Shown: positions 5,663 to 22,185 of the stretch, piece by piece
How the letters are laid out: each line of letters begins with the position of its first letter
Numbering within the stretch: the first letter of the stretch is position 1
Source: Rikenella microfusus DSM 15922
GTDB lineage: Bacteria > Bacteroidota > Bacteroidia > Bacteroidales > Rikenellaceae
Direction of reading: 5' to 3'
Length of the DNA: 64,000 nt
Assembly: GCF_000427365.1 (NCBI RefSeq)
Contig: NZ_KE386488.1
Coordinates: forward strand, 992,001 to 1,056,000
The notes under the pieces: model-generated
Seen by the model: only the letters and a program-made list of their open reading frames with translations
Databases searched by the model: none
Told to the model about the DNA's origin: nothing
Translations under genes and position numbers: made by a program

Positions 5663-7486
5663 TTAGTATTGCATCTCGATCCGATACGGTACCTGCGCCT
5701 TGATGCCCGGATCCGTCACCATTTCGCGGACGCGTAGGGCTTCGGCGCCAAGGGGCGGCATGCCGCCGCCCGTTATCTTCGCCACTGCCGAACCGGTCAG
5801 CGATCCGAGGATCGAAGCGAACGACGAGGTTTCCGGCTCCGGATACTGCCGGACGGCATAATCGCCCGGTTCCAGCCCGGCATGTTCCGCAGCGATCCGC
5901 ACCGCGTCGCGCAACGTTCCGGTGCAGTCGGCCAGTCCGTTTTCCATCGCCTGCACGCCGGTCCACACGCGGCCGCCGGCCATCGCGTCCACGCTGTCCG
6001 CGGTCAGATTGCGGCCCCTCGCCACCAACTCCACGAACCGCGCATAGACCGTATCCACCCCGTTCTGGATATAAAGGCGTTCGGCCGGACTCAGCGGCCG
6101 GAACATATTGCCGAGGTCGGCCGCAGGATTGGTTTTCACCACGTCGGCGGTCAGCCCGAGGTGTTCCCGCGCCCCTTCGCCGACATTGAACGTCAGGCCG
6201 AACACGCCGATCGACCCGGTGAGGGTGGTCGGGGCCGTTACGATATATTCCGCGCCGCAACTGATGTAATATCCGCCCGAAGCGGCGTAATTTCCCATCG
6301 AGACGATCACGGGTTTCGCCTGCTGGAGGAGGCTGACCTCGCGCCAGATGATCTCGGCCGCTAATGCGCTCCCGCCGGGGCTGTTGACGCGCAGCACCAC
6401 CGCTTTCACGTCGTCGTCCTTGCGGATTTCGGCCAATGTCTCGGCCAGCGCATTCCCGACGATCTGTTTGTTCCGGTCGCCGGCATCCACGATGTCGCCG
6501 TCGGCGTACACCAGGGCGATCTCGTCGGTCGCTAACGCGTTGCCCATCGTCGCGCGTCCCGCGCTCCGGCGGCCGGCGAATTTGTAATCCTCCAGAGGGA
6601 GTATCTTCGGTTCGCCGGTCGAATCCTGCCCCGACAGGCGGGCCAGTTCGTCGGTCATCTGATCGCGGTAGTAAAGGCTGTCCACGAATCCCAGCCGCAC
6701 GGCGTCGCGGGGGGTGGCCACGGCCAGCCGCGACGCGTAGCTTTGCAGGCTGTCGGCTGCGATTTCCCGGCTCTCGGCGATCTCGCTGACGAGGTAGTCC
6801 CAGACGGAACGGGTCATGGACTCCATCTGCAACCGGTTTTCATCGCTCAGCTGCTCTCGAATAAAGGGTTCGCCGGCTCCCTTGAATTTGCCGTGCCGGA
6901 TCAATTCGGCTTGCACGCCGAGCTTGTCGAGCAGCCCTTTGTAAAATATCACGTTGGAGGCCAGCCCCTGCCAGGCCAGCCCGCCCTGGGGGTTCAGATA
7001 TACTTTGTCGCCGGCCGAGGCGAGGTAATACCCGTCCTGGGAATAGACGTCGGCATAGGAGACGACGAATTTACCGCTTTCGCGGAATTCGGCCAGTGCC
7101 TGACGCAGTTCGTAAAGGGTCGAAACGGAGGAGGGAATGGCCATGGGCACGTTCAGGTAGATGCCGTCGATGACGGGGTCTTCGGCGGCTTTCCCGATCA
7201 GGGCGACGGCTTCGTACAGGGTGGTCTGCTCGCGGAAACTGAATTCGTTGTAATCGAACAGGTCGATGGCGCTCCCTTTCGATTTGTCCACAATGGGCTG
7301 CGCCAGGTCGATACGCAATATGGTGTGGGGATGTACGGGACCGGCGCTCTTGCTTCCGGAACCGATACCGCCGATGGCGGCTATCAATCCGGCGAGCATC
7401 ATGAAACTCAATATGACAAAGGCAATGCCGCTGACAAATATGGCCAACAAACAGGCAAAAAAGGTCTTGAAAAAACTATTCATCAC
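5663..7486 (-). CDS. sppA: Signal peptide peptidase SppA, 67-kDa type (family S49)
   Basis: This membrane-anchored Ser-Lys protease degrades cleaved signal peptides. The 607-residue protein has one N-terminal transmembrane helix (about residues 10-38) and the duplicated S49 fold of the E. coli enzyme. The predicted nucleophile is S403 in NYAASGGYYIS and the general-base lysine is K202 in HGKFKGAGEPF. It is the first gene of the sppA-lpxK-punA set; about 245 bp separate it from lpxK. The region just upstream is occupied by a type A repeat, so its promoter may lie in or beyond that repeat. Confidence 0.95.
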   Translation of the reverse strand: MMNSFFKTFFACLLAIFVSGIAFVILSFMMLAGLIAAIGGIGSGSKSAGPVHPHTILRIDLAQPIVDKSKGSAIDLFDYNEFSFREQTTLYEAVALIGKAAEDPVIDGIYLNVPMAIPSSVSTLYELRQALAEFRESGKFVVSYADVYSQDGYYLASAGDKVYLNPQGGLAWQGLASNVIFYKGLLDKLGVQAELIRHGKFKGAGEPFIREQLSDENRLQMESMTRSVWDYLVSEIAESREIAADSLQSYASRLAVATPRDAVRLGFVDSLYYRDQMTDELARLSGQDSTGEPKILPLEDYKFAGRRSAGRATMGNALATDEIALVYADGDIVDAGDRNKQIVGNALAETLAEIRKDDDVKAVVLRVNSPGGSALAAEIIWREVSLLQQAKPVIVSMGNYAASGGYYISCGAEYIVTAPTTLTGSIGVFGLTFNVGEGAREHLGLTADVVKTNPAADLGNMFRPLSPAERLYIQNGVDTVYARFVELVARGRNLTADSVDAMAGGRVWTGVQAMENGLADCTGTLRDAVRIAAEHAGLEPGDYAVRQYPEPETSSFASILGSLTGSAVAKITGGGMPPLGAEALRVREMVTDPGIKAQVPYRIEMQY

Positions 7487-7497
7487 AAATCTATCCC

Positions 7498-7907
7498 TTT
7501 AACTGTTCGTTTATCCGTACATTGAGAGTAGAGTCCACTGTTCTTTCTTTGAAAAGAAAGAACCAAAGAAACTTTCGAGCAGGTTTGCAATGCCTCAGTT
7601 TGTCGAAAACCTTTTCTTGCAGACTTCTTTGTTCTGTAACAGATAGGGGACATCGGGCATAACGATATTAAAGTCCCCTATCCGTTACAGAACAAACTTT
7701 CAAAGGCAAAGGTCATCCGCCAGGCTCAAGAGATGCGCAAGCATCTCAAAAAGTTTTTCTGGTTCTCTTTGTTCACAACCGACGCTGCCAGCGAATCCAG
7801 AGACCGTTTACGGGCTATGGTAAGCGGCGAGGAGGAAAACGAGCGTAGCGAAGTTAAAGAGAACAGTCGCCTCAAACCTGAACAGTACAGATAAACGAAC
7901 GGTTAAA
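7498..7907. repeat. Type A structured repeat, copy 1 (with a 79-bp insert)
   Basis: A 410-bp non-coding element between sppA and ssb. The ends are imperfect inverted repeats (TTTAACTGTTCGTTTAT and ATAAACGAACGGTTAAA). Inside, in order: a hairpin GTTCTTTCTTT/AAGAAAGAAC; a 22-bp central stem (7630-7651 with 7673-7694, one mismatch); a hairpin GAGATGC/GCATCTC; and a hairpin GTTCTCTTTG/AGAGAAC. The loop of the last hairpin is split by a 79-bp insert (7779-7857). Copies 2 and 3 are at 28816-29165 and 43757-44090. Confidence 0.88.
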
Positions 7908-7971
7908 ATACTAATTTGCGCTAAGATACGATTTTTTCGGGAGAACAGGCGCAAGAATGCGAATAAATCAG

Positions 7972-7979
7972 TATCTTCG
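7972..7979 (+). promoter_or_regulatory. Candidate -7 box of the ssb promoter
   Basis: TATCTTCG is one base from the Bacteroidota -7 consensus TAnnTTTG and lies 42 bp before the ssb start. A clear -33 TTTG at the usual distance is not obvious. Confidence 0.5.
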
Positions 7980-8021
7980 GAAATCGTATAACAATCAAAC
8001 TATCGCAAAAAACAGACAGAT

Positions 8022-8483
8022 ATGGTCAATAAAGTTATTCTGATCGGGAACGTAGGCGCCGAGCCGGAAGTACGCGCATTGGAGACCGGCATAAAAATGG
8101 CACGGCTGAGGATCGCCACCACCGAACGCATCTACAACTCCTCCACCGGCGAAAAACGCGAACACACCGAATGGCACACCGTCGTCCTCTGGCGCGGTCA
8201 GGCCGACTTCGCCGAGAAATATATCCGCAAAGGGAGCCAGGTTTACGTCGAAGGGAAAATCCGGTCGCGCGAATGGACCGAAGAAGCCACCGGCAACAAA
8301 CGGTACGCCATCGAAATCCTGGCCGACGAAATCCGACTGCTCGGCGGGCAACGGAGAAACGACGGCAACTACGGCGAACACCGCGGCGGGCCGCAACCGG
8401 GACACCCCGCCTACGGCAGCCGGCAAGAGGCGCAGAACACCGTTCCCGGACTGCCCAAAGACGCCGACGACCTGCCCTTCTGA
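8022..8483 (+). CDS. ssb: Single-stranded DNA-binding protein
   Basis: The 153-residue protein has the OB-fold typical of SSB over residues 1-105 (N-terminal MVNKVILIGNVGAEPEVR), then a flexible Gly/Pro/Gln-rich tail, and ends with the acidic tip DADDLPF that recruits replication and repair partners. It coats single-stranded DNA in replication, recombination and repair. The methionine aminopeptidase gene follows after about 50 bp but has its own candidate promoter. Length and both ends match the family well. Confidence 0.97.
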   Translation: MVNKVILIGNVGAEPEVRALETGIKMARLRIATTERIYNSSTGEKREHTEWHTVVLWRGQADFAEKYIRKGSQVYVEGKIRSREWTEEATGNKRYAIEILADEIRLLGGQRRNDGNYGEHRGGPQPGHPAYGSRQEAQNTVPGLPKDADDLPF

Positions 8484-8521
8484 GCCGCCCGCGGCAGGGA
8501 ACAGCGGGAAGCTATTTTTCG

Positions 8522-8529
8522 TACCTTCG
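8522..8529 (+). promoter_or_regulatory. Candidate -7 box of map, four bases from the start codon
   Basis: TACCTTCG resembles the Bacteroidota -7 element TAnnTTTG. It ends only four bases before the ATG at 8534, so transcription from it would begin at or next to the start codon. Confidence 0.5.
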
Positions 8530-8533
8530 CGCT

Positions 8534-9394
8534 ATGCCTAAAATAAACTTTCGACACGACAGCGCCCCCGCCCCGTCCCGCATCGCGGACGACACGGAGC
8601 GCAGAATCGCCTGGTACCGCCAGCGGGGACATGAAGTCCCCCCGCGGCGGCTCATCAAGACCCCCGAACAGATCGAAGGGATACGCCTCAGCGGAATCGT
8701 CAATACCGGCGTGCTCGACCTGATCGAAGAACGCATCCGGCCCGGCATGAGCACCGCCGAGATCGACCGGCTCGTGTACGACTACACCGTCTCGCACGGA
8801 GCCGTACCCGCTCCCCTGAATTACGAAGGATTCCCAAAAAGCGTGTGCACCTCCATCGACGAAGTGGTCTGCCACGGCATCCCCAGCGACAAAGTCATAC
8901 TCAAAGAGGGCGACATCGTCAATGTCGATGTTTCGACCATCCTGAACGGCTATTACTCCGACGCCTCGCGCATGTTCATGATCGGCGAAGTGTCCGACGA
9001 GAAACGGAGGCTGGTCGAAGTGACGCGGGAATGCCTGCACATCGGAGCCGAAGCCGCCAAACCGTTCGGATTCGTCGGCGACATCGGCGCGGCGATCCAG
9101 CGGCACGCCGAAAAGAACGGCTATTCCGTCGTGCGCGACCTGTGCGGGCACGGCGTGGGGCTGGAATTCCACGAAGAGCCGGAAGTGGCCCATTACGGCC
9201 GCCGCGGCACCGGGATGCTGCTCGTGCCCGGCATGGTCTTCACCATCGAACCGATGATCAACATGGGCGACTGGCGCGTCACCGTCGATCAGCGGGACGG
9301 ATGGACCGTGCGTACCCGCGACGGCAAACCCTCCGCGCAATGGGAACACACGTTCGTCATGACCGAGTCGGGCGTAAAGGTCCTCACGCATTAG
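8534..9394 (+). CDS. map: Methionine aminopeptidase, type I
   Basis: This metallopeptidase removes the initiator methionine from new proteins. The frame is open further upstream, but the ATG at 8534 (MPKINFRHDS) is chosen because upstream residues overlap ssb and match nothing. The 286-residue product carries an N-terminal extension of about 35 residues before the pita-bread fold. Metal ligands are visible: VDVSTILNGYYSDASR (two Asp), CGHGVG (His), FTIEPM (Glu) and QWEHT (Glu). The N-terminal extension with RLIKTPEQIEGIR is usual for Bacteroidales MetAPs. Confidence 0.95.
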   Translation: MPKINFRHDSAPAPSRIADDTERRIAWYRQRGHEVPPRRLIKTPEQIEGIRLSGIVNTGVLDLIEERIRPGMSTAEIDRLVYDYTVSHGAVPAPLNYEGFPKSVCTSIDEVVCHGIPSDKVILKEGDIVNVDVSTILNGYYSDASRMFMIGEVSDEKRRLVEVTRECLHIGAEAAKPFGFVGDIGAAIQRHAEKNGYSVVRDLCGHGVGLEFHEEPEVAHYGRRGTGMLLVPGMVFTIEPMINMGDWRVTVDQRDGWTVRTRDGKPSAQWEHTFVMTESGVKVLTH

Positions 9395-9587
9395 CTTCCG
9401 GGCCGAGCGGCGCACTGCCGTCCGTTATTCTCCGGTTCTCAGCCGGAAGTTGAAGCCCGGCCCGCACACCGAGCGGCGCCGCAGAACCGAACAGGGAGAC
9501 CATCTCCCGATTCGGGGTGAGATCTTATGCGCCTGCACAACAAACAGCCCGCCGTGCCGCCGCACGGCACGACACCCGACCCGAAAC

Positions 9588-10847
9588 ATGTACGGACTGG
9601 CCGACTGCAATAACTTTTTCGTCAGTTGCGAGCGCGTCTTCGCGCCCCGGCTGGAAGGCATCCCCGTCGTCGTACTGAGCAACAACGACGGGTGCGTCAT
9701 CTCGCGCTCGAACGAAGCCAAAGCCATCGGCATCCGAATGGGCCAGCCCCTGTTCCAGGCCTCCCCCCTCATCCGGCGGCACGGCGTGCAGGTGCTGTCG
9801 TCCAACTATGCGCTGTACAGCGACATGTCCCACCGAGTGATGACCACCCTCCGCTCGCTGGTTCCCGCCGCCGAGGTCTACTCCATCGACGAAGCTTTCC
9901 TCGACCTGTCCGGCATACCGACCGGCGAACTATCCGCACTGGGGCGCCGCATCGCCTCGACCGTGCGCCGTCATACCGGCATCCCGGTCAGTATCGGCAC
10001 GGCTCCTTCCAAAACGCTCGCCAAAATAGCCAGCAAACTCTGCAAACAGTACCCGAAACTGCACGACAGCTGCCTGATGTACCGGCCGGAAGACATCGCC
10101 AAAGTACTGCGGACATTTCCCGTACAGGACATCTGGGGCATCGGGCGGCGGCACGGCCCGATGCTGCGCGGAGCCGGCATCCTCACCGCCGGACAATTCG
10201 TACAGGCCAGGGAAGAGTGGATCCGCCACCGCATGGGAGTTGCCGGCCTTCGGACCTGGAAAGAACTCCGCGGCGAACCCTGCATCGGATTCGAACACAC
10301 GCCGCCCGCCAAACAGCAGATATGCACTTCGCGCAGTTTCGCCGCCGAAGCGACCGATCCGGACGACCTGCGCCGGGCGGTGGCCCTATTCACGGCCCAG
10401 TGTGCGGAAAAACTGCGCAGGCAAGGCAGCGTCTGCAGCGAAGTGCAGGTCTTCATCGCCACCAACCGTCACCGCCCGGAGCTTCCCCAACAGTACGCGA
10501 ACCGTATCCTGTCGCCGCCGACGCCGACAGACAGTACGCTGGAACTGACCGTACTGGCCGAACGCGCCCTGCGCAGCATCTTCACGCCGGGATTCGGATA
10601 CAAGAAAGCCGGAGTCATCCTCAGCGGGATCGGCCCCCGCGCGGCCGTGCAGACCTCGCTGTTCGACCCCTCGGACCGGGGACGGCAAACCCGGCTGATG
10701 AAAGCGCTCGACCAAGTGAACGGCCGCTTCGGCCGACACACGCTCGTCACCGCCGCGCAAGGGTTCGATCCGGTAAAAACCAATCGTAACCACGTCTCGC
10801 CGAACTATACCACTTCATGGGACGAACTGCCGGAAATCAAAGTCTGA
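9588..10847 (+). CDS. umuC: Y-family DNA polymerase V catalytic subunit (UmuC)
   Basis: This is a lesion-bypass polymerase. The start at 9588 gives MYGLADCNNFFVSCERVF, the conserved first palm strand with the catalytic Asp; the longer open frame upstream adds only Arg/Pro-rich residues. The second acidic motif is in YSIDEAFLDLSG. A helix-hairpin-helix region (about residues 175-210) and a little-finger domain follow; total 419 residues, normal for UmuC. The usual umuD partner, normally just upstream, is absent from this window. Confidence 0.93.
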   Translation: MYGLADCNNFFVSCERVFAPRLEGIPVVVLSNNDGCVISRSNEAKAIGIRMGQPLFQASPLIRRHGVQVLSSNYALYSDMSHRVMTTLRSLVPAAEVYSIDEAFLDLSGIPTGELSALGRRIASTVRRHTGIPVSIGTAPSKTLAKIASKLCKQYPKLHDSCLMYRPEDIAKVLRTFPVQDIWGIGRRHGPMLRGAGILTAGQFVQAREEWIRHRMGVAGLRTWKELRGEPCIGFEHTPPAKQQICTSRSFAAEATDPDDLRRAVALFTAQCAEKLRRQGSVCSEVQVFIATNRHRPELPQQYANRILSPPTPTDSTLELTVLAERALRSIFTPGFGYKKAGVILSGIGPRAAVQTSLFDPSDRGRQTRLMKALDQVNGRFGRHTLVTAAQGFDPVKTNRNHVSPNYTTSWDELPEIKV

Positions 10848-12144: not shown

Positions 12145-13719
12145 ATGCGGCCTATGCTTCGAAATCATCTTTTTCCGCTTGCTTTCGCCGGCCTTTGCGC
12201 GGGTACTCTGCTGGCGACCTCCGACGCTTTTATCGACAGCCGGATACTCCCCAAGCGGTACGCATTCGCATTCGGTATCGCGGCGGTACTGACGGTTGCG
12301 GCTATTGCCGGCCATACCGATTGCGACCGATGCCGGAGACAGACGGCGCGATTTTGCGCCGTCGTCATCGGTGCCGCCTGTCTCGCAGAGGCTGTCACAG
12401 GCATACTTCAATTCATGCAACTATGGCCCCCCTATGGAAGATTCCGCGTAACCGGTACTTTCGACAATCCGGCGGGCTTTGCGGCAGTTTTATGCTGCGG
12501 GTTGCCGTTCATACTGTCATTTTTGAATGAGGAACGCCGGACGATGCGTTATTCGGCTGTCGCCGCCACGATACCGGTCATCGTCGGAATCATTCTGTCC
12601 GGCTCCCGTACCGGGATGCTATGCGCCGTCATCGTTCTGGCGGTCCGCGTTTCCGGTGCCGTCAGACGCTGGAAATATTTACGGCAGAGCGTACCGTTGC
12701 TGGCGCTCTTGCTGCTGGCGGGACTCTATCTCCTGAAAAAGGATTCCGCCGACGGACGGCTGCTCGTCTGGCGTTGTTCATTGGAGATGATAATCGACAA
12801 ACCCCTCTTCGGCCACGGTCCCGGAGGGTTCACAGCCGAATATATGAACTACCAGGCCGATTATTTCCGAACACATCCCGACAGTCCATACGCGCAGCTG
12901 GCCGATTCGGTCCATCACCCGTTCAACGAATACCTGTTGGCGGCGGTCGATTACGGGTGTCTCGGCCTGCTCGTGTTGATCGTGTCGGGCGCGGCGATCG
13001 TACGGAGGTACCGCCGGGCAGCCGGAGGAGATCCTATAATCCGGGCGGCCGGTTCGTGCCTGTTGGCAATCGGGATTTTCGCCATTTTTTCGTATCCGTT
13101 TTTCTATCCTTTCACTTGGGCAATGGCATTGTTCAGCCTGTGGATCGTATTCGGATGTTCATGGCTATCCCGCCTGTTGCCTCGCTTTTTAGCAATCGGG
13201 GCGGCAGCAACGCTGTGCGTATTCGCCCTCCGGGATATGCGGAATCAATATGCCTGGCAACGTGCCGACCGTATGGCCACTGTCGGGGATCCGGCAAATG
13301 CGCTGCCGTTGTACGAAAAGTCGTATCCGAAACTTGTCCGGGATCGGCATTTTTTGTATAATTACGCATACGTATTGAACGAGGCGGGGGAATATGCCGA
13401 GAGTCTGGCGATAGCCGAGGCGTGCAGCGAGCGATGGGCCGACTATCACGTGGAGTTGCTGCGGGGCGATGCGGCTTTCAAACTGGAACGGTATGACGAG
13501 GCGGAACGGCATTTCGCGCAGGCGGCCCGGATGTGCCCTTCGCGGTTTATGCCGCTGTATAAATTGGTTACGATCTATCAGGCAACCGAACGGAAGAACA
13601 AGGCGTACGACTTGGCGAAACGAATACTGGCCAAGGAGGTGAAAATTCCGTCTGCGACCGTTACGGCCATCCGCCATGAGATGCGCCGAATAGTCGATAC
13701 GACGAATAAAGTTCAATAA
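12145..13719 (+). CDS. O-antigen ligase / Wzy-like polytopic membrane protein with C-terminal TPRs
   Basis: The 524-residue protein has about ten predicted membrane helices over residues 1-350. A Wzy_C-type core is visible: FDNPAGFAAVL near residue 110, LSGSRTG near 150, and a periplasmic loop with GHGPGGFTAEY and HHPFNEYL near 215-260. These motifs fit the O-antigen ligase/polymerase superfamily. The last 150 residues are TPR-like helical pairs. No glycosyltransferases or flippase lie nearby, so the glycan substrate is unknown; protein O-glycosylation ligases share this fold. The start could also be the ATG at 12154. Confidence 0.8.
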   Translation: MRPMLRNHLFPLAFAGLCAGTLLATSDAFIDSRILPKRYAFAFGIAAVLTVAAIAGHTDCDRCRRQTARFCAVVIGAACLAEAVTGILQFMQLWPPYGRFRVTGTFDNPAGFAAVLCCGLPFILSFLNEERRTMRYSAVAATIPVIVGIILSGSRTGMLCAVIVLAVRVSGAVRRWKYLRQSVPLLALLLLAGLYLLKKDSADGRLLVWRCSLEMIIDKPLFGHGPGGFTAEYMNYQADYFRTHPDSPYAQLADSVHHPFNEYLLAAVDYGCLGLLVLIVSGAAIVRRYRRAAGGDPIIRAAGSCLLAIGIFAIFSYPFFYPFTWAMALFSLWIVFGCSWLSRLLPRFLAIGAAATLCVFALRDMRNQYAWQRADRMATVGDPANALPLYEKSYPKLVRDRHFLYNYAYVLNEAGEYAESLAIAEACSERWADYHVELLRGDAAFKLERYDEAERHFAQAARMCPSRFMPLYKLVTIYQATERKNKAYDLAKRILAKEVKIPSATVTAIRHEMRRIVDTTNKVQ

Positions 13720-13763
13720 CCTAAATCCCCGTAACCCTGAAAAGAGAGACATTACGAAACGGT

Positions 13764-14558
13764 TTGACACTGACCGTCCTGTCGATGACGATTTGTCTGT
13801 CGGCAGCAATGTCGGTAACTTCCTGCCAGAAACAGAGTTTCGAGGAAGAATTGTCTGCACCCCGAAGCGCCATGAACAAAACCGAGTTACCGTATCTGGA
13901 TTTTACGACCGGCTACGACGGCACAGGCATTGCGTCCGACGAAGATTGGGAGGTAATCATGCAGCTGGCTCAACGGGTGAAACTTTCGAAAGAGAGCGGC
14001 CTATGGGAAGCGAATGTCCGTTCGGCGGATGAAATCAACGTTTCGCCGGAGGTTTTCGCCTTTTTGACTCAAACGATCGAAAACAGCAATGCCAAAATTC
14101 TTGCACATCTGACCGCGAGGAGCATAATGCCGCGCAAATTGATACCCGGCGAAGGAGATCCGCTGGAAGAGCCGACCCGGAGCGATTGCGTCGCTTCCTG
14201 TTTCGGGTGGATACACGACATGATGGGTTTCGGACCGTCATACGATTCGGCGAACTCGTGGATTAACAGCACTTTCGGAAGCGGGGTGCCGAGTAGTCAA
14301 ATGGAATCTACACTCAAACACTTTTATGGCCCAAATAATGTATCCTCATTTCCGGTCAACATCCAGGGAGACAACTATAAGTACAATGAAAAGAACTCAG
14401 CCGTCATTCTAAACCATAAGGTCAACGATTCGACCGGCCACGCCGTTATCTATGGAGGAACCAGCAATGGGACGCATTGGGTGACAGACCCCCAGAACGG
14501 TGCTATGGATTTGGTGGACCCTTCAGATGTGATATCAGCCTATGAAGTTCGGCAATAA
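13764..14558 (+). CDS. Predicted cysteine-peptidase-like lipoprotein
   Basis: About 264 residues. After a hydrophobic stretch comes SVTSC, a plausible lipoprotein cysteine. Motifs DCVASCFGWIHD (about residues 150-160), GHAVIYGG and HWVTDPQNG suggest a Cys-His-Asp triad of a papain- or C39-like fold; this is inference from the pattern. The start is unclear: no ATG precedes the hydrophobic stretch. In-frame options are TTG at 13764, CTG at 13737 (which would supply the basic KRETLRN region expected of a signal peptide) and ATG at 13785. The next gene overlaps its end by 17 bp, so the two are probably coupled. Confidence 0.6.
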   Translation: MTLTVLSMTICLSAAMSVTSCQKQSFEEELSAPRSAMNKTELPYLDFTTGYDGTGIASDEDWEVIMQLAQRVKLSKESGLWEANVRSADEINVSPEVFAFLTQTIENSNAKILAHLTARSIMPRKLIPGEGDPLEEPTRSDCVASCFGWIHDMMGFGPSYDSANSWINSTFGSGVPSSQMESTLKHFYGPNNVSSFPVNIQGDNYKYNEKNSAVILNHKVNDSTGHAVIYGGTSNGTHWVTDPQNGAMDLVDPSDVISAYEVRQ

Positions 14559-15195
14559 ATCGATTCTGCCAAAATGGATTTTCATCTGGGGAGCGATCCT
14601 AACGGGCCCCATCTCCGATGTGTCGGCACAAGTCATCCCTGCGATCAGGGCGGCGAGATTCGTTTCGAAACGGCATCGTGTCATTCGGCGGATACCCCGG
14701 GGGTTCCGTGTCGAACAAAAGCTCATCCACCTCTGGAAATACGGTTATTCCTGGACGTTCGATTCCTTAAACGATTCGTGGAAACGTTTCAGTAAAACCG
14801 GACAAGTCGGTGCGTTGTTCCGATCGGACGACCGACAATGCGAAGTGATATACAGCGTCGCCTTGGGATTCGACAACCATCGATCGTGGCTCCGAAACGA
14901 TCTGCTGAATATCTCGCAAGGGCAGGACACCGCTCGTTTCGAAGATCACGTAACCGTAATGACCGGTCAGGCAGTTCGACCGTTCAACGCCGATTCGATG
15001 TTTCTGCTCGAACTGCCGATCGAACCGATGGAGCGGGACGGATCCCTCTATACCCGCTGCGTGAGGATGTATCTGACCCGGAAAGGGCACACCTTTCTGG
15101 ATTTCGTCTGGTTCTTCACCGACGAGGGTTACGCCCGACGACAGGAATATCTGCGGGCGATAGAGGGAAAGGTCTATTTCAAGAAAGAACGATAA
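14542..15195 (+). CDS. Secreted protein of unknown function, paralogue 1
   Basis: The 217-residue protein has a signal peptide ending near SDVSAQ. I do not recognise the family. The mature part is rich in basic and aromatic residues and contains DARFEDHVTVMTG-like and FLDFVWFFTDEGYARR segments. It begins inside the end of the cysteine-peptidase-like gene and is followed 38 bp later by a paralogue. Its second half is nearly identical at DNA level to that paralogue while the first half has diverged. A role as substrate, inhibitor or partner of the upstream protein is possible but untested. Confidence 0.75.
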   Translation: MKFGNKSILPKWIFIWGAILTGPISDVSAQVIPAIRAARFVSKRHRVIRRIPRGFRVEQKLIHLWKYGYSWTFDSLNDSWKRFSKTGQVGALFRSDDRQCEVIYSVALGFDNHRSWLRNDLLNISQGQDTARFEDHVTVMTGQAVRPFNADSMFLLELPIEPMERDGSLYTRCVRMYLTRKGHTFLDFVWFFTDEGYARRQEYLRAIEGKVYFKKER

Positions 15196-15233
15196 AATGT
15201 TATCCGCCTATAAGGTTACGAAATAAACCGACC

Positions 15234-15893
15234 ATGCAAAAATTGGTTTTTCTGATGTGGGTAGCGATCGTAATAGGGATTGCCCCCCATGTGTCGGCCC
15301 GAACGGTTTCCGCAGTCAAAGCCGCCAGACAGGTTTCGAGACAGACTCATGTTGTCCGGCAGATACCTCGAGATTTTCATATCGCGCAAAAACAAATCTA
15401 TCTCTGGAAATGGGACAATAATGGGAAATCCGATTCATTAACAGGCTCGGTGAAACGGTGGGCCAGATCCTGTCAGGTCGGCCTCCTGCTTCAGTCGGAC
15501 GACTTGCAATGCGAGGTCATATACAGCGTTGCTTACGGGACGGGAAGCAATTACCGAGGTTGGATCAAATATGATCTGCTGGATATTTCGCAAGGACAGG
15601 ACACTGCTCGTTTCGAAGATCACGTAACCGTAATGACCGGTCAGGCAGTTCGACCGTTCAACGCCGATTCGATGTTTCTGCTCGAACTGCCGATCGAACC
15701 GATGGAGCGGGACGGATCCCTCTATACCCGTTGCGTGAGGATGTATCTGATCCGGACAGGGCACACCTTTCTGGATTTCGTCTGGTTCTTCACCGACGAG
15801 GGTTACGCCCGACGGCAGAAATATATGCGGGCGATAGAGGGAAAGGTCTATTTCAAGAAAAGGCAGGAAAGCCCGCACCGTCCGACGAAGTAA
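15234..15893 (+). CDS. Secreted protein of unknown function, paralogue 2
   Basis: The 219-residue protein starts at the ATG at 15234 with a clear signal peptide (MQKLVFLMWVAIVIGIAP, cleavage near HVSA). The frame is open much further upstream, but that part overlaps paralogue 1 out of frame. It matches paralogue 1 along its whole length, strongly in the C-terminal half. A 125-bp stretch (15606-15730) is identical to 14932-15056, pointing to recent duplication or gene conversion. Function unknown. Confidence 0.75.
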   Translation: MQKLVFLMWVAIVIGIAPHVSARTVSAVKAARQVSRQTHVVRQIPRDFHIAQKQIYLWKWDNNGKSDSLTGSVKRWARSCQVGLLLQSDDLQCEVIYSVAYGTGSNYRGWIKYDLLDISQGQDTARFEDHVTVMTGQAVRPFNADSMFLLELPIEPMERDGSLYTRCVRMYLIRTGHTFLDFVWFFTDEGYARRQKYMRAIEGKVYFKKRQESPHRPTK

Positions 15894-16255: not shown

Positions 16256-19200
16256 ATGGCAAAAGTATTGGGCCTGGACGCCGGCACCAACTCGCTGGGA
16301 TGGGCCATCGTCGAAGAAACCGAAACGGGATATATCCTGGAAGACAAAGGTGTACATATCTTCCAGGAGGGCGTCGCACGCGATAAGAACAACGAAAAAC
16401 CGGCCGTACAGGATCGTACCGACGCACGAGCCCTGCGGCGTCGCTATTTCCGGCGCCGTCTGAGAAAAATCGAACTGCTCCGGGTGCTCGTCCGCTACGG
16501 TCTGTGCCCTCCGCTGACCGAAGAGCAGCTGGAAGCATGGAGGGAGAAAAAACGCTATCCGCTCGACGCGGCTTTCCTCCGCTGGCAGCGTACCGACGAC
16601 AACGCCGAGAGGAATCCCTACCACGACCGCTACCGCGCCCTGACCGAGACGCTCGACCTCAGCGACGAGCGGCATCGTCATGCGCTCGGGCGCGCCCTCT
16701 ACCACCTCGCGCAACGGCGCGGATTCCTCAGCAACCGCAAGGAGGCCGGCAACGGAAAAGAAGAAGGAGCGGTACAGAGCGGCATCGAAAACCTGTCGGC
16801 CGAGATGGAGAAAGCAGGGTGCCGTTACCTCGGCGAATATTTCTACCAACTGTACCGGCGGAAAGAGAAGATCCGCAAGCGATATACTTCGCGCAACAAA
16901 CACTATCTGGCCGAGTTCAATGCCATCTGCGAACGGCAGCGCCTGCCCGAAGAGTGGCGGAAAGCCCTGCACCGTGCGATTTTTTTCCAGCGACCGCTCA
17001 AATCGCAGAAAGGATCGGTGGGCAAATGCACCTTCGAGCGTAAGAAAAGCCGCTGTCCGGTCTCGCATCCGCGATTCGAGGAGTTTCGGATGCGCTCGTT
17101 CATCAACAACATCCGGCTGACGGCGCCCGGGGACGACACGCCCCGGCCCCTGACGCGGCTGGAAACGGAAACGATCCTGCCGCTCTTCCTGCGCAAAAGC
17201 AAGCCGCACTTCGATTTCGAGGAGATCGCCCGCAGGATCGCCGGCAAAGGACAATACGGCTGTCAAGGCGACCGCAACGAGGCCCCCTACCGGTTCAACT
17301 TCGCCCGTACCGCCACCGTCAGCGGCTGCCCCGTAACGGCATCGCTCATCGCCCTCTTCGGCGACGACTGGCTCCCGGAAATATGCCGGCTCTACCGGCT
17401 CGGCGAGGGGAAGAGCGAAGAACAGGTGCTGAACGACATCTGGCACGCGCTTTTCTCGTTCGACGACGAAGAGCGGCTCCGGGCGTGGGCGGCCGATAAG
17501 CTCCGGCTCGCCGACGAACAGGCCAAGGCTTTCGCCGCCATCCGTCTGCCGCAGGACTACGCGGCCCTGAGTCTGAACGCGATCAACAAGATACTGCCTT
17601 ATCTCCGCCGCGGCTACCGTTACGACGAGGCGGTATTCCTGGCCAACCTGAAAGCCGTGCTTCCGCCGGCGACGTATGCCGACGAAACCCGCCGTCTTCG
17701 TATCGAGCGCGACATCGCCGAACTGACCCTCGAATCCCGACGCGAACCCTACGTCAAATACGACTCGAAAGAGCGTCGCATCGACGACTACCTGACCGAC
17801 CAGGGCGTCCCCCCGGCCCGTCTGAACCGGCTCTACCACCCCTCGATGATCGAGACCTACCGGGCGGCCCGACCCGACGCGCAGGGACTGCTGCTGCTCG
17901 GATCGCCGCGCACCGCTTCGATCCGCAACCCGATGGCGATGCGGGCTTTGTTCCGGCTCCGGACCCTGGTAAACCGGCTTCTGCGCGAAGGCAAGATCGA
18001 CCCCGACACGAAAATCCGGATCGAATTCGCCCGCGGCCTGAACGACGCCAACCAACGTAAAGCCATCGAGCAATACCAGCGCGAACGGGAAGCCGAAAAT
18101 CGGAAATATGCCGACGAAATCCGGGCGCAATACGCCGCAGAAACGGGACTGACCATCGAGCCTTCGGAGGACGACATTCTGAAATACCGTCTTTGGGAAG
18201 AACAGAAACACGTCTGCCCCTACACCGGAAAACAGATCCGAGTTTCGGACTTTATCGGATCGGCTCCGGGTTTCGACATCGAACATACACTGCCGCGCGC
18301 CCGCGGCGGCGACGATTCGCAGATGAACAAAACGCTTTGCGAAAGCCGTTTCAACCGGGAAAGCAAACGGACGAAATTGCCCGCCGAATTGTCGAACCGT
18401 GCCGAAATCCTGGAACGGATCGAAAGTTTCGGATGGCGGGAAAAGGTCGAATCGTTGCAGAAACAGATCGAGGCCCAGTTCCGAAAGGGGAGAAACGCCC
18501 CCACGAAAGAGGAAAGGGACAGCGCCATCCAACGGCGCCACTACCTGCGCATGCAACGCGATTACTGGCGCGGAAAATACGAACGGTTCGCCATGACCGA
18601 AATCCCGGAAGGTTTCAGCAACCGGCAGGGGGTCGATATCGGGATCATCGGGAAGTATGCACGGCTCTACCTGAAAACGGTTTTCAGGCGGATCTATATC
18701 GTCAAAGGTTCCACGACCGACGCTTTCCGTAAAATGTGGGGATTGCAGGAAGAATACGCCCGCAAAGAGCGCATAAATCATGTACACCACTGCATCGACG
18801 CCATCACGATCGCCTGCATCGGCCCTAAGGAATACGACCGCTGGGCCCGGTACGCCGCCGATGAAGAGCGGTACCGCTACGGGGCGGGAGCTAGGCCGCG
18901 TTTCGACAAGCCGTGGCCGACCTTTACCGAGGATGTCAAAGCCGTAGCCGACGAACTGCTCGTCTCGCACCATACGCCGGACAATATGGCCAAACAGACC
19001 CGGAAAAAACTTCGGGTACGGGGCAGGGTGAAGCTCGACGCCGCCGGACGGCCGATCTGCCAACAGGGCGATACGGCGCGGGGACGACTGCATCAGGACA
19101 CTTTTTACGGAGCGATACGGCACCAGGACAAGCTCCGCTACGTGATCCGCAAATCGATCGGCGACTTGCAGCCGGCCGATGTCGAAAAGATCGTGGACGA

Positions 19201-19954
19201 AACCGTCAAGGCACGCATCAAGGAGGCGATCGGCGAAGTCGGATTCAAGACGGCGATGAATCCCGACGAACACACGATCTGGATGAACCGCGAAAAGGGA
19301 GTCCCGATCCGCAGGGTACGCATCTTCGCCAATATCACCCAGCCGCTGCCGTGGGACAAAATGCAGCGCGACCTCTCCGTTCACGAATACAAACGGCGTT
19401 ACCACGTGGCCAACGACGGCAATTACTGCATGGCGATCTACGAAGGGACCGACTCGAAAGGCAGGACAAAACGCTCGTTCGAGATCGTGAACCTGCTCGA
19501 CGCTGCCGGATATTTCAAAGCCAGCGCCGACCGCACGGCCCGTCCCGACCTGGTACCGCGCACGAATGCGAACGGCCATCCGCTCAAGTATCTGTTAAAG
19601 ACGGGTACGATGGTGCTTTTCTACGAAAATTCGCCCGCCGAATTGTACGACTGCCCGCCCAAAGAACTTGCCAAGCGGCTATATAAGGTCACCAAAATGG
19701 CAAAGAACGGCCAAACTGCATTCATGTTCCACCAGGAAGCCCGCAACGACGACAAACTGAAAACCGACTATGCGGAGAAATTCGGGACGACCGCCCCAAA
19801 AGCATTGACCAACGGCTACTCGTCGGTCGATTACCAGCAGCCCCACCCGAAACTCCTGTTAAGCCCTTCCAGTTTCGATATGTACGTCGAAGGTTACGAC
19901 TTCGAACTGACCGTTACCGGGCAAATCATCTTCAAACACGAGACGCCATGCTGA
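16256..19954 (+). CDS. cas9: Type II-C CRISPR effector nuclease Cas9
   Basis: The 1232-residue RNA-guided nuclease carries all active-site motifs: RuvC-I D8 in VLGLDAGTNSLGW, the Arg-rich bridge helix RRRYFRRRLRKIELLR (about residues 61-76), RuvC-II E590 in IRIEFARG, HNH H677 in DIEHTLPRARGGDDS, and RuvC-III H845/D848 in HHCIDA. The C-terminal third should hold the PAM-interacting region. It is followed by cas1 (7-bp overlap) and cas2 with no csn2 or cas4, which defines subtype II-C. The nuclease looks intact. A long open frame on the opposite strand is an artefact of codon bias. Confidence 0.98.
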   Translation: MAKVLGLDAGTNSLGWAIVEETETGYILEDKGVHIFQEGVARDKNNEKPAVQDRTDARALRRRYFRRRLRKIELLRVLVRYGLCPPLTEEQLEAWREKKRYPLDAAFLRWQRTDDNAERNPYHDRYRALTETLDLSDERHRHALGRALYHLAQRRGFLSNRKEAGNGKEEGAVQSGIENLSAEMEKAGCRYLGEYFYQLYRRKEKIRKRYTSRNKHYLAEFNAICERQRLPEEWRKALHRAIFFQRPLKSQKGSVGKCTFERKKSRCPVSHPRFEEFRMRSFINNIRLTAPGDDTPRPLTRLETETILPLFLRKSKPHFDFEEIARRIAGKGQYGCQGDRNEAPYRFNFARTATVSGCPVTASLIALFGDDWLPEICRLYRLGEGKSEEQVLNDIWHALFSFDDEERLRAWAADKLRLADEQAKAFAAIRLPQDYAALSLNAINKILPYLRRGYRYDEAVFLANLKAVLPPATYADETRRLRIERDIAELTLESRREPYVKYDSKERRIDDYLTDQGVPPARLNRLYHPSMIETYRAARPDAQGLLLLGSPRTASIRNPMAMRALFRLRTLVNRLLREGKIDPDTKIRIEFARGLNDANQRKAIEQYQREREAENRKYADEIRAQYAAETGLTIEPSEDDILKYRLWEEQKHVCPYTGKQIRVSDFIGSAPGFDIEHTLPRARGGDDSQMNKTLCESRFNRESKRTKLPAELSNRAEILERIESFGWREKVESLQKQIEAQFRKGRNAPTKEERDSAIQRRHYLRMQRDYWRGKYERFAMTEIPEGFSNRQGVDIGIIGKYARLYLKTVFRRIYIVKGSTTDAFRKMWGLQEEYARKERINHVHHCIDAITIACIGPKEYDRWARYAADEERYRYGAGARPRFDKPWPTFTEDVKAVADELLVSHHTPDNMAKQTRKKLRVRGRVKLDAAGRPICQQGDTARGRLHQDTFYGAIRHQDKLRYVIRKSIGDLQPADVEKIVDETVKARIKEAIGEVGFKTAMNPDEHTIWMNREKGVPIRRVRIFANITQPLPWDKMQRDLSVHEYKRRYHVANDGNYCMAIYEGTDSKGRTKRSFEIVNLLDAAGYFKASADRTARPDLVPRTNANGHPLKYLLKTGTMVLFYENSPAELYDCPPKELAKRLYKVTKMAKNGQTAFMFHQEARNDDKLKTDYAEKFGTTAPKALTNGYSSVDYQQPHPKLLLSPSSFDMYVEGYDFELTVTGQIIFKHETPC

Positions 19955-20835
19955 AACGCGCCCTTTTCTTTTCGACTCCCCACTGCCTGAGCCTGCGGAA
20001 CGGACAGATGGTCATCCGTACCCGCGAGACCCCCGACGCGCAAAAAAGCGTACCGGTCGAAGACATCGGATTCGTGGTGCTGGAACACCAACAGACCTCC
20101 GTCACCCTGCCGCTGCTCAACGCCCTGTCGGATAACAACGCGGCGGTGATATTCTGCGGCGACAACCGGATGCCGAACGCCATGCTGCTGAACCTGGATT
20201 CCAACACAACCCAGGGCGAGAGTTACCGGGATCAGATCGAAGCGAGCGAGCCGCTCAAAAAAGGGATATGGAAACAGATCGTCGAAGCCAAAATCCGCAA
20301 CCAGGCGGCCCTGCTGAACAAATTGGGCCGCGACGGCAACAAACTGAAACCCCATTACATGAATGTCAGGAGCGCGGATGCTGACAATCGCGAAGGGATT
20401 GCCGCCCGTATCTACTGGACCGAATTATTCGGTCCCGGCTTTATCCGTTCCCGCGAAGGGCTGCCGCCCAATCCTCTGCTCAACTACGGCTACACGATCC
20501 TGCGGGCAGCCGTGGCGCGGGCGCTCATGGGATCGGGACTGCTGCCGGCATTCGGTATTTTTCATCGGAACCGATACAACTGCTTTCCGTTAGCCGACGA
20601 TTTGATGGAACCCTACCGCCCCTATGTAGACGAACGGGTGTATGACCTTTACGGACAAGGGCACCGGCATCTGACGCAGGAGGCGAAAAGCGAACTGTTA
20701 CGGGTGCTATTCACGGACACACGTTTCGACAAGGTAGTACGACCGCTCGATATAGGACTTACCATCACTTCGGCTTCGCTGGCCGGGTGTTTCGCCGGGA
20801 CACGCAAGAAAATTTCGTACCCTCTGCTGGAGTAA
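19948..20835 (+). CDS. cas1: CRISPR integrase Cas1 (subtype II)
   Basis: With Cas2 it forms the complex that inserts new spacers. The 295-residue protein has the beta-rich N-terminal domain and the helical catalytic domain, with the expected metal ligands in ARIYWTELFG (Glu), FGIFHRNRYN (His) and the acidic segment PLADDLMEPYRPYVDE. The ATG at 19948 lies within the last codons of cas9, and cas2 begins four bases after its stop, so the three genes form one operon. Confidence 0.97.
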   Translation: MLKRALFFSTPHCLSLRNGQMVIRTRETPDAQKSVPVEDIGFVVLEHQQTSVTLPLLNALSDNNAAVIFCGDNRMPNAMLLNLDSNTTQGESYRDQIEASEPLKKGIWKQIVEAKIRNQAALLNKLGRDGNKLKPHYMNVRSADADNREGIAARIYWTELFGPGFIRSREGLPPNPLLNYGYTILRAAVARALMGSGLLPAFGIFHRNRYNCFPLADDLMEPYRPYVDERVYDLYGQGHRHLTQEAKSELLRVLFTDTRFDKVVRPLDIGLTITSASLAGCFAGTRKKISYPLLE

Positions 20836-20839
20836 CCCC

Positions 20840-21178
20840 ATGCCGGAACTACGACTAAATGCCTATCGGATTATGTGGCTGTTCGTCTTTTTCGATCTGC
20901 CGACCAACACCAAAACGGAGCGGCGCCATGCGGCGCAATTCCGCAAGGCGTTGGAAAAAGACGGCTTTACGATGATGCAATACTCGGTATATGTCCGGCA
21001 TTGCGCATCGAAAGAGAACATGCAGGTACATATCAAACGGGTGCGGCGTTCGACGCCTCCTTCGGGTTATACGAGTATCCTTGCCGTAACGGACAAACAA
21101 TACGGCGACATCCTGAATTTCTGGGGCAAGACCGAGTGCGCCAAACCGGACATGCCACAGCAACTGGAACTTTTCTGA
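20840..21178 (+). CDS. cas2: CRISPR-associated protein Cas2
   Basis: The 112-residue protein has a ferredoxin-like fold with the conserved aspartate in MWLFVFFDLPTNTKTER and the motif QYSVYVRHC. It is the structural partner of Cas1 in spacer acquisition. The first dozen residues precede the usual start MWLFVFFDL; the ATG at 20872 is an alternative start. The CRISPR array begins 130 bp downstream. Confidence 0.96.
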   Translation: MPELRLNAYRIMWLFVFFDLPTNTKTERRHAAQFRKALEKDGFTMMQYSVYVRHCASKENMQVHIKRVRRSTPPSGYTSILAVTDKQYGDILNFWGKTECAKPDMPQQLELF

Positions 21179-21308
21179 GAAATTGGTTAAATTTGTTCCT
21201 TGAAATAGAAAAACGCATCAAATCGGCTTCGCCGGCGTTTCCCGCTTTGGTTTTCACAGCCGAAGAAAGGCTATAAAGCACTAATTAACAACCCTTAACG
21301 GTCCCGGC
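21179..21308 (+). promoter_or_regulatory. Probable CRISPR leader
   Basis: The 130 bp between cas2 and the first repeat contain TAAATTTG at 21188-21195, a full match to the Bacteroidota -7 element, and AT-rich sequence (AAGCACTAATTAACAACCC) next to the first repeat. The far end of the array carries decayed repeats, which marks it as the trailer; that supports reading this side as the leader. Confidence 0.6.
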
Positions 21309-22185
21309 GTTGTGGTTTGATGTAGATTTTTAATAAGATACAACTCAGGAAGTTCGGAAGGATAACTCACACGGTTGTGGTTTGATGTAGATTTTTAATA
21401 AGATACAACTTTCTGGCAATATTGTGTTTAACACCATTTGTTGTGGTTTGATGTAGATTTTTAATAAGATACAACCGCGCTTCTGTAAGTACTCTTCTAT
21501 CAAAGTTGTGGTTTGATGTAGATTTTTAATAAGATACAACCATCCTTAGCCACGGAAGTACCATAGTTCTGTTGTGGTTTGATGTAGATTTTTAATAAGA
21601 TACAACCTGTTTGCGACGGGCAGAGGGGGACTGATGTTGTGGTTTGATGTAGATTTTTAATAAGATACAACTTCCGGGTCGTTGCAAGTGGCACCGTCGT
21701 TGGTTGTGGTTTGATGTAGATTTTTAATAAGATACAACGAAAGAATCGCTGACGGCCCTGTATCACGGTTGTGGTTTGATGTAGATTTTTAATAAGATAC
21801 AACAATGCCGTCTGTGTATGAGTAACAGATTGTGTTGTGGTTTGATGTAGATTTTTAATAAGATACAACTCGGACATACTGCGTCCCGTCGGCCCTATAG
21901 TTGTGGTTTGATGTAGATTTTTAATAAGATACAACCAAAAATCCGAGAACCCTACGGAGGCAAACGTTGTGGTTTGATGTAGATTTTTAATAAGATACAA
22001 CCAATCTCGTGAGTTTACTTTCGAAGCGAAGGTTGTGGTTTGATGTAGATTTTTAATAAGATACAACGGTTTAATACGTACTATTGGTATTCCAGCGTTG
22101 TGGTTTGATGTAGATTTTCAATAAGATACAACCGTCGATTCGGCTTGTGCGATACTGGAAGGTTGTGGTTTGATGTAGAATTTTG
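21309..22185 (+). CRISPR. Type II-C CRISPR array, 13 full repeats plus one broken repeat, 13 spacers
   Basis: The 36-bp repeat begins GTTGTGGTTTGATGTAGA and ends TTTTTAATAAGATACAAC. Full repeats start at 21309, 21374, 21440, 21505, 21571, 21636, 21703, 21768, 21834, 21900, 21966, 22032 and 22097. Spacers are 29-31 bp and all differ. The first twelve repeats read as identical; the thirteenth has one T-to-C change, and the fourteenth (from 22162) keeps only its first 18 bases. Its decay places the trailer on the right. The tracrRNA anti-repeat matches the plus-strand repeat, so crRNAs read left to right. Confidence 0.99.

What the first reader, a model, noticed from the sequence alone, without database searches (positions are those of the whole stretch)
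13725..15893. Predicted cysteine-peptidase lipoprotein coupled to two tandem secreted paralogues
The first gene has a Cys...His...Asp pattern and a lipobox; the second starts inside its end, and a third is a duplicate of the second. Both downstream proteins have signal peptides and no recognisable domain. Enzyme-plus-partner pairs (peptidase with inhibitor, maturation factor or substrate) are often arranged like this. The upstream O-antigen-ligase-like gene may belong to the same transcript.
Basis: inference. Interest (0 to 1): 0.6.

Follow-up and report, generated by a model that had tools for sequence, protein, structure and literature searches.

The report
Surface-lipoprotein toxin with paired immunity genes
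A gut-type bacterium carries a surface-anchored protein that ends in a papain-like cysteine-protease domain, followed by two secreted partner proteins; relatives show the same anchor carrying quite different, toxin-like ends, so this looks like an antibacterial weapon with its protective proteins, although nothing has been tested in the laboratory.

Summary
Behind an O-antigen-ligase/TPR gene (12145-13719) lies a lipoprotein whose C-terminal half has a papain/C39-type fold with invariant Cys-His-Asp. Its end overlaps by 17 bp a secreted-protein gene (SP1), followed by a tandem paralogue (SP2). The trio recurs in another family of the order and in a Flavicella genome. The lipoprotein is modular: the same lipobox and ~110-residue N-terminal domain carries unrelated C-terminal payloads (papain-like; hydrophobic glycine-rich; short cysteine-bearing). 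Papain payloads are followed by SP in 7 of 8 cases that can be judged; the five other payloads never are, and three of those five are followed by a small 3-TM protein. The best Foldseek PDB match of the model is a papain-like toxin/immunity pair, closely followed by C39 peptidases. Another O-antigen-ligase paralogue in this genome sits beside a fulvocin-C-type bacteriocin. Best reading: a surface-lipoprotein protease toxin with duplicated periplasmic immunity proteins, a new variant of polymorphic toxins (about 0.6). Against it: the toxin gene has no ATG start, SP homologues also occur alone and in longer non-toxin proteins, the ligase's role is unknown, and toxicity is untested.

The parts
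12145..13719 (+). O-antigen-ligase-like (Wzy_C) membrane protein with C-terminal TPR region, 524 aa; first gene of the presumed transcript
   Evidence: PF04932 E 3.9e-16, 59.6 bits against cut-off 31.7; 54% identical relative in the same position in G056 and 32% in G526
13737..14558 (+). Lipoprotein with papain/C39-like C-terminal domain, 273 aa from a CTG start (264 aa from TTG 13764); no ATG available
   Evidence: homologues
13824..14150 (+). Lipid Cys and shared N-terminal carrier domain, ending in a basic stretch before the payload (PRK here; R-x-K in 10 of 13 members)
   Evidence: N-terminal alignment A6, 13 proteins with different payloads
14151..14555 (+). Payload: papain/C39-like domain; Cys codon 14187-14189, His 14439-14441, Asp 14487-14489, Gln 14493-14495
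   Evidence: triad invariant in 8 of 8; AF2 model and PDB matches
14542..15195 (+). SP1: secreted protein, 217 aa, start overlaps the end of the lipoprotein gene by 17 bp; presumed periplasmic immunity protein
   Evidence: model with PsbP/Mog1-like matches
15203..15226 (+). Remnant resembling the 3' end of the lipoprotein gene (SAYKVTK* against SAYEVRQ*), in front of SP2
   Evidence: read directly from the sequence printed (18 of 24 nt, counted by eye); the pairwise alignment run in that call gave no identical run of 30 nt or more there
15234..15893 (+). SP2: tandem paralogue of SP1, 219 aa
   Evidence: 68% identity; 5' part 33-43 of 60 nt identical per block, 3' part 57-60 of 60

Best explanation
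An interbacterial toxin/immunity cassette of Bacteroidota. The lipoprotein is exported by Sec, lipidated and, judging by the acidic residues after the lipid Cys, probably displayed on the cell surface. Its N-terminal ~110 residues are a common carrier (pro-)domain and its C-terminal ~135 residues a papain/C39-like protease (or amidase) toxin. After release, probably by a trypsin- or clostripain-like protease at the conserved basic stretch between the two parts, the payload enters rival cells and cleaves an essential protein. SP1 and SP2 are exported to the periplasm, where they would bind and neutralise the payload of the cell itself or its kin; the duplication, with a homogenised 3' part and a diverged 5' part, would widen the range of payloads tolerated. 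The ligase-like gene is probably co-transcribed and may act on the surface glycan or on the lipoprotein itself. Shown: gene order, homology, modularity, predicted fold, triad conservation. Inferred: surface display, release, entry, target, neutralisation, role of the ligase.
For: (1) Modular lipoproteins: from a profile of four papain-type members, lipoproteins with the same N-terminal part but no papain domain come up beside ligase genes (L071 7.4e-9, L102 7.4e-8, L067 1.4e-6, L100 6.7e-4, L120 1.5e-3); payloads listed, that of L120. (2) The partner follows the payload: SP directly behind the papain type in 7 of 8 judged copies (window, L018, L017, L063, L117, both L139 copies; the eighth, L113, has an overlapping secreted gene that I could not show to be homologous), and behind 0 of 5 others, of which 3 (L067, L071, L102) have a 78-83 aa protein with three hydrophobic segments. 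(3) Best Foldseek PDB match of the model is 9l5u, a papain-like protease toxin/immunity pair (E 2.2e-4), with CdiA-CT 8ssk among the six matches at E<=0.001; VIA Z 9.8 and 9.3. (4) Tox-PL1 signature NC-H-DxQ in print (PMC3482391, passages): C, H and D in 8 of 8, DxQ in 7 of 8. (5) SP copies are mosaic in two unrelated bacteria, window and Flavicella L139. (6) Another ligase paralogue of this genome lies beside NF033852 'bacteriocin fulvocin C-related' (L051, 4.3e-33), and a second lipoprotein family beside such genes carries a JAB-like end (L102, PF14464 E 1.1e-4, below its cut-off) with its own secreted partner. (7) Precedents: BcpT/BcpI (PMC9308784) and Fab1/RFab1 (PMC8406203), protoxins cut by clostripain-type proteases with immunity genes downstream (passages); the genome has a clostripain-family gene.
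Against: No toxicity or binding data. C39 processing peptidases match the model as well as or better than the toxins do (ComA Z 11.2, PCAT1 10.6). The gene has no ATG start in the window or in G062, so it may be poorly made or decaying. SP homologues occur without the lipoprotein in 5 of 8 family genomes, and SP-like domains occur in 536-570 aa proteins of G522, one of them with what I read as TonB-like repeats, which do not look like immunity proteins. The oxyanion Gln and CG of C39 are absent. PF15644 is far below its cut-off (13.3 against 24.1 bits). The family is rare: 1 of 395 phylum genomes (own only) with A9, 7 of 393 order genomes with A1, only own and G526 of them strong.
Confidence: 0.6

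Rival explanations
1. A surface cysteine peptidase with a dedicated secreted inhibitor or chaperone and no role in antagonism, comparable to staphopain/staphostatin or C10 peptidase/Spi pairs: the enzyme processes surface or host proteins and SP keeps it inactive until export.
For: Papain-type fold with complete triad; staphopain-staphostatin complex among VIA matches, Z 9.9; SP directly downstream with overlapping genes.
Against: The same N-terminal domain carries unrelated, apparently non-enzymatic payloads with other downstream partners; nearest-fold and neighbourhood evidence points to antagonism.
Confidence: 0.2
2. A maturation or export device: the C39-like domain trims SP or other secreted peptides of the ligase neighbourhood, and SP is its substrate.
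For: Best VIA matches are bacteriocin-leader peptidases (ComA 11.2, PCAT1 10.6, 6mpz 9.8); other ligase paralogues lie near small leader-like peptides (L054, L060).
Against: SP has an ordinary signal peptide and no double-glycine leader that I could see; the enzyme is a lipoprotein outside the cytoplasm, unlike C39 transporter domains; relatives with the same N-terminal domain lack the peptidase altogether; SP copies occur without the enzyme.
Confidence: 0.1
3. A glycan-display locus: the ligase-like protein is a dedicated O-glycosyl (or LPS) ligase and the lipoprotein and/or SP are its surface substrates, the variable C-terminal parts being surface antigens.
For: The ligase gene is a recurrent neighbour; a transglutaminase-like lipoprotein sits in 50 of 72 ligase loci; PglL-type ligases often lie beside their substrate (PMC3643930, start of abstract seen).
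Against: Conserved catalytic triad in 8 of 8 is not expected of a passive antigen; G062 keeps lipoprotein and SP without the ligase beside them.
Confidence: 0.1

Closest known systems
Polymorphic toxins with lipobox plus APD1/APD2 prodomains (Amoebophilus asiaticus; PMC3482391, passages)
   Same: Signal peptide, lipobox, conserved N-terminal domain, highly variable C-terminal effector domains
   Different: Described there as parallel effectors against a eukaryotic host; here apparently another N-terminal domain (not compared by sequence, APD profiles not at hand), coupled to a ligase gene and to secreted partners, in Bacteroidales and a flavobacterium
BcpT/BcpI and Fab1/RFab1 of Bacteroides/Phocaeicola (PMC9308784, PMC8406203, passages)
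   Same: Protoxin (a lipoprotein in BcpT) whose C-terminal fragment acts, cut by clostripain-type proteases; immunity gene just downstream; orphan immunity genes for RFab1
   Different: Those toxins are larger (499 aa; 50 kDa) and without recognisable domain or known-toxin similarity; here a small protease-fold payload, and release is only inferred
Cpe1/Cpi1 papain-like protease toxin and immunity protein (PMC12136450, passages; I take PDB 9l5u to be this pair, a link not found in the paper's text)
   Same: Papain/C39-like fold, Cys-His-Asp, immunity gene next to the toxin
   Different: Associated with T6SS/CDI delivery and the cytoplasmic targets GyrB/ParE; here lipoprotein-borne; SP carries a signal peptide
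C39 peptidase domains (ComA, PCAT1, 6mpz)
   Same: Fold and triad (VIA Z 9.8-11.2)
   Different: No transporter, no CG motif or oxyanion Gln, no PF03412 match at E up to 10
Bacteriocin fulvocin C-related proteins (NF033852)
   Same: Lipoprotein beside an O-antigen-ligase/TPR paralogue, N-terminal part followed by a distinct C-terminal toxin-like peptide
   Different: Another N-terminal part and a Cys-rich peptide, with other neighbours

Membership tests
Tox-PL1 papain-like toxin (PF15644) | C, H and D catalytic residues; NC-H-DxQ signature | tested here: met
   C, H, D in 8 of 8 and DxQ in 7 of 8 aligned payloads; the N before C only in 1 of 8 (L063)
Tox-PL1 papain-like toxin (PF15644) | Score above the Pfam gathering cut-off | tested here: not met
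   13.3 bits against 24.1 for the window protein; 2 of 8 members listed at all, best E 0.032
Peptidase family C39 | Papain-like fold of C39 type | tested here: met
   VIA Z 11.2 over 121 residues, rmsd 3.0, to ComA; model pLDDT 74-91 per block in this part, apart from two blocks near 60
Peptidase family C39 | Sequence match to the family and its Gln-Cys-Gly motif (motif recalled) | tested here: not met
   no PF03412 match at E up to 10; no conserved Gln before Cys and no CG in 8 of 8
Polymorphic toxin system | Common N-terminal trafficking domain with exchangeable C-terminal domains | tested here: met
   13 proteins share the N-terminal domain, with papain-like and several unrelated C-terminal parts
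Polymorphic toxin system | Cognate immunity gene directly downstream, changing with the toxin domain | tested here: inconclusive
   SP behind 7 of 8 papain payloads and 0 of 5 others; neutralisation not testable here
Polymorphic toxin system | C-terminal domain is toxic to bacteria | not testable with these tools
   needs expression
O-antigen ligase superfamily (Wzy_C) | PF04932 above cut-off | tested here: met
   59.6 bits against 31.7
PsbP/Mog1-like fold (SP1/SP2) | Fold match | tested here: inconclusive
   model pLDDT 67.5; Foldseek nothing at E<=0.001; VIA Z 8.4 LpqN (139 aligned, rmsd 3.9), 8.0 EagT6, 7.9 CyanoP, 6.4 TplEi

The most novel reading that the evidence does not exclude
A previously undescribed class of Bacteroidota polymorphic toxins: surface lipoproteins built on one carrier domain with swappable bacteriocin-like or enzymatic payloads (papain-like with SP immunity; pore-former-like with 3-TM immunity), generally installed beside an O-antigen-ligase/TPR gene that either decorates the toxin or remodels the producer's own LPS so that it is not a target.
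Probability: 0.4. Interest if true: 0.75.

Novelty: new variant of a known kind. Interest (0 to 1): 0.56.

Why it matters
If right, it adds a protease-type, lipoprotein-borne toxin family to the few known weapons of gut Bacteroidota, and it gives a function-oriented reading to a set of O-antigen-ligase/TPR loci whose linkage to bacteriocin-like proteins I did not find in print (searches; listings only, plus passages of the papers named). It also makes predictions that are cheap to test: catalytic-Cys-dependent toxicity, neutralisation by the downstream gene, and cleavage at the basic stretch.

Tried and rejected
Rejected: maturation peptidase for SP as main reading (other payloads on the same carrier). 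Rejected: membership in C39 (no Pfam match, motif absent). Dropped as chance: the weak matches to G207, G433, G472, G483 and G532 (for those read the proteins are unrelated; G472 was not read; the G483 protein with a leader-like start was not followed), the CED4, SMMA and PAZ Pfam matches, and the stand-alone lipoproteins of G576/G785 with only a partial N-terminal match; G549, G634, G683, G750 and G777 were not followed as too weak. L113's downstream gene: aligned with SP, but E 4.6 in the ORF set and hhalign probability under 1%, so I count it as not shown.

No result: phmmer of the lipoprotein against PDB sequences; genome-contig scan with the single protein; plasmid tblastn with the L117 relative; PHROGs; PADLOC for genes 1-4; Rfam; a Bacteroidetes-type promoter pattern (recalled) found no site near the locus. 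Foldseek for SP gave nothing at E<=0.001. A paper search on 'papain-like cysteine protease toxin' found none.

Limits: G062 and G040 are fragmented; the 80 loci were found through the ligase, so ligase adjacency in them is by construction; searches driven by the lipoprotein are (ligase adjacent in 3 of 4 strong lipoprotein loci: window, G056, G526; not G062). Counts over loci use 72 (L065-L136) of the 80; L137-L144 were left out by number (mostly weak matches, though L139 and L141 are not; L139 is used separately).

Full report
What is there. Four genes follow each other on the + strand: a Wzy_C/TPR protein (12145-13719), a lipoprotein (open 13725-14558), and two paralogous secreted proteins (14542-15195, 15234-15893). 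The gap between ligase stop and lipoprotein start (CTG) is 17 nt, and the lipoprotein and SP1 genes overlap by 17 nt. The lipoprotein has no ATG: relative L018 begins ATG AAA AGA, the window has CTG AAA AGA at the matching place, and the G062 copy has no ATG there either. So the gene may be weakly translated or decaying.

Relatives. In 150 genomes of the family the lipoprotein is found in 3 (own, G056, G062) and SP in 8 (own, G040, G048, G056, G062, G008, G028, G063). G056 has ligase, lipoprotein, SP in the same order; G062 has lipoprotein and SP without the ligase beside them; G040 has broken ligase pieces and three SP copies or pieces; G008, G028 and G063 have SP alone. In 393 genomes of the order, one more strong relative (G526, E 1.3e-9) lies in a trio, in the order lipoprotein, SP, ligase. 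A ligase-driven scan of named genomes returned 80 loci; among them L117 (Bacteroidales) has the trio and L139 (Flavicella sediminum, a flavobacterium) has lipoprotein, SP, lipoprotein, SP, SP, ligase.

A modular lipoprotein. The lipoprotein profile also finds lipoproteins beside ligase genes whose second half is unrelated: L071, L067 and L102 end in hydrophobic, glycine/alanine-rich stretches, L100 and L120 in short cysteine-bearing parts. The shared part runs from the lipid Cys over YLDL..., A..R.., S...I(N)IS..LF to a basic stretch (R-x-K in 10 of 13; the exceptions are the window and its two genus-mates, with PRK, TRQ and RTR); C, L, R and F are invariant in 13 of 13. Two to four acidic residues follow the lipid Cys within nine positions; that such residues mark surface lipoproteins is stated for a related case in PMC9308784 (passage). 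What follows the payload changes with it: SP behind 7 of 8 papain-type copies that can be judged (L080 is cut by its contig end and not counted), and 0 of 5 others, while L067, L071 and L102 have a 78-83 aa protein with three hydrophobic segments. By hand, the chance of 7 of 8 against 0 of 5 is 8/1716, about 0.005, if the loci were independent, which they are only in part.

Fold. AlphaFold2 on eight rows gives mean pLDDT 71.6, pTM 0.50; the payload is well formed (helix starting at the Cys, then a sheet bearing His and Asp), the N-terminal 20 residues and the linker at 98-119 are not. Foldseek against PDB: 9l5u (papain-like protease toxin/immunity pair) 2.2e-4, PCAT1 3.5e-4, CdiA-CT 8ssk 4.2e-4. 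VIA: ComA 11.2, PeiR 11.0, PCAT1 10.6, staphopain 9.9, 9l5u 9.8, CdiA-CT 9.3. The fold therefore does not decide between toxin and processing peptidase; the neighbourhood does most of the work. The triad is invariant in 8 of 8 payloads, with D-x-Q in 7 of 8, like the NC-H-DxQ pattern printed for Tox-PL1 (PMC3482391, passages). SP gives a weaker model (pLDDT 67.5, pTM 0.67) whose best VIA matches are LpqN 8.4, BT_1490 8.1, the T6SS effector chaperone EagT6 8.0 and CyanoP 7.9, with the T6SS immunity proteins TplEi and Tli4 at 6.4 and 5.8; I recall most of these as members of the PsbP/Mog1 fold group. At these Z values the fold assignment is tentative.

Mosaic SP copies. SP1 and SP2 share 33-43 of 60 nt per block in the first 360 columns and 57-60 of 60 in the next four blocks, with a 125-nt identical run. 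The three Flavicella copies show the same: 30-49 of 60 over the first 480 columns, then 53-60 of 60. Recurrent homogenisation of the 3' part with a free 5' part fits partner proteins under diversifying selection at one end; it does not prove it.

Neighbourhood of the ligase family. Five Wzy_C/TPR genes occur in this genome. One (L051) lies beside a lipoprotein of NF033852, bacteriocin fulvocin C-related, 115.3 bits against 35; L054 has two small peptides, a propeller-like protein and a thioredoxin-like protein (my reading). Among 72 of the 80 named loci, 10 have the N-terminal-domain lipoprotein, 13 a fulvocin-like one (my three-sequence profile) and 50 a transglutaminase-like lipoprotein (the type was checked with Pfam for L071 only). 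A second lipoprotein family has a JAB-like C-terminal part (L102, PF14464 E 1.1e-4, under its cut-off) and its own secreted partner downstream. In G062 such a pair lies directly beside the papain pair.

Mechanism. I hold that the lipoprotein is a surface-displayed protoxin, the papain-like part the toxin, and SP1/SP2 periplasmic immunity proteins (0.6). Shown are homology, gene order, modularity and predicted fold; surface display, release, target and neutralisation are inferred. A clostripain-family gene elsewhere in the genome could be the releasing protease, as for BcpT and Fab1 (passages). The ligase may decorate the toxin or change the cell's own surface; I have no evidence for either.

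Against. SP-like domains in long proteins of G522, and SP without the lipoprotein in 5 of 8 family genomes, show that SP is not only an immunity protein. C39 peptidases are at least as near in fold. The toxin gene's start is doubtful. No activity was measured. The family is rare and patchy, which suits an accessory weapon but also limits the statistics.

Novelty. Lipobox-anchored polymorphic effectors, papain-like toxins and Bacteroides lipoprotein toxins are each known; this carrier domain, its payload set and the link to the ligase family I did not find in print. I call it a new variant of a known kind.

Noticed in passing
window 16256-22132: Type II CRISPR-Cas locus directly downstream: Cas9 (1232 aa; PADLOC Cas9 models, best 6.5e-75), Cas1- and Cas2-like frames (named by position and my reading) and an array of at least 13 repeats (36-nt common part) at 21298-22132.
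   Followed up: partly
L051 (G000:C2:645500-657500), 6138-9910: A second O-antigen-ligase/TPR paralogue of this genome lies beside a fulvocin-C-related bacteriocin lipoprotein (NF033852, 4.3e-33), a membrane protein with a thioredoxin-like end and a DUF1573-like protein (the last two names are my reading).
   Followed up: partly
L060 6842-7135 and 10343-10636; L054 8974-9710: Other ligase/TPR paralogues sit with small proteins that share a leader-like N-terminus but differ at the C-terminus (NVEALA-like by recollection), beside propeller-like and thioredoxin-like genes; no convincing NCBIfam match for the two tested.
   Followed up: no
L017 7486-9006; L080 4828-6465; L102 3749-5362: A second lipoprotein family with JAB-metalloprotease-like C-terminus paired with a secreted protein; second toxin/immunity-like pair, beside the papain pair in G062.
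   Followed up: partly
L065-L136: A transglutaminase-like lipoprotein (with F5/8-type C-terminal domain in L071) occurs in 50 of 72 ligase/TPR loci, but not at the window locus.
   Followed up: partly
L163 7609-9219; L164 5024-10196 (G522): SP-like domains occur, doubled or fused to what look like TonB-C-type repeats, in tandem genes with no toxin-like neighbour.
   Followed up: no
L031 1441-1977 (G483): A papain/C39-like protein with a bacteriocin-type leader-like N-terminus and a DPQN motif, weak match to the payload (E 0.0087).
   Followed up: no
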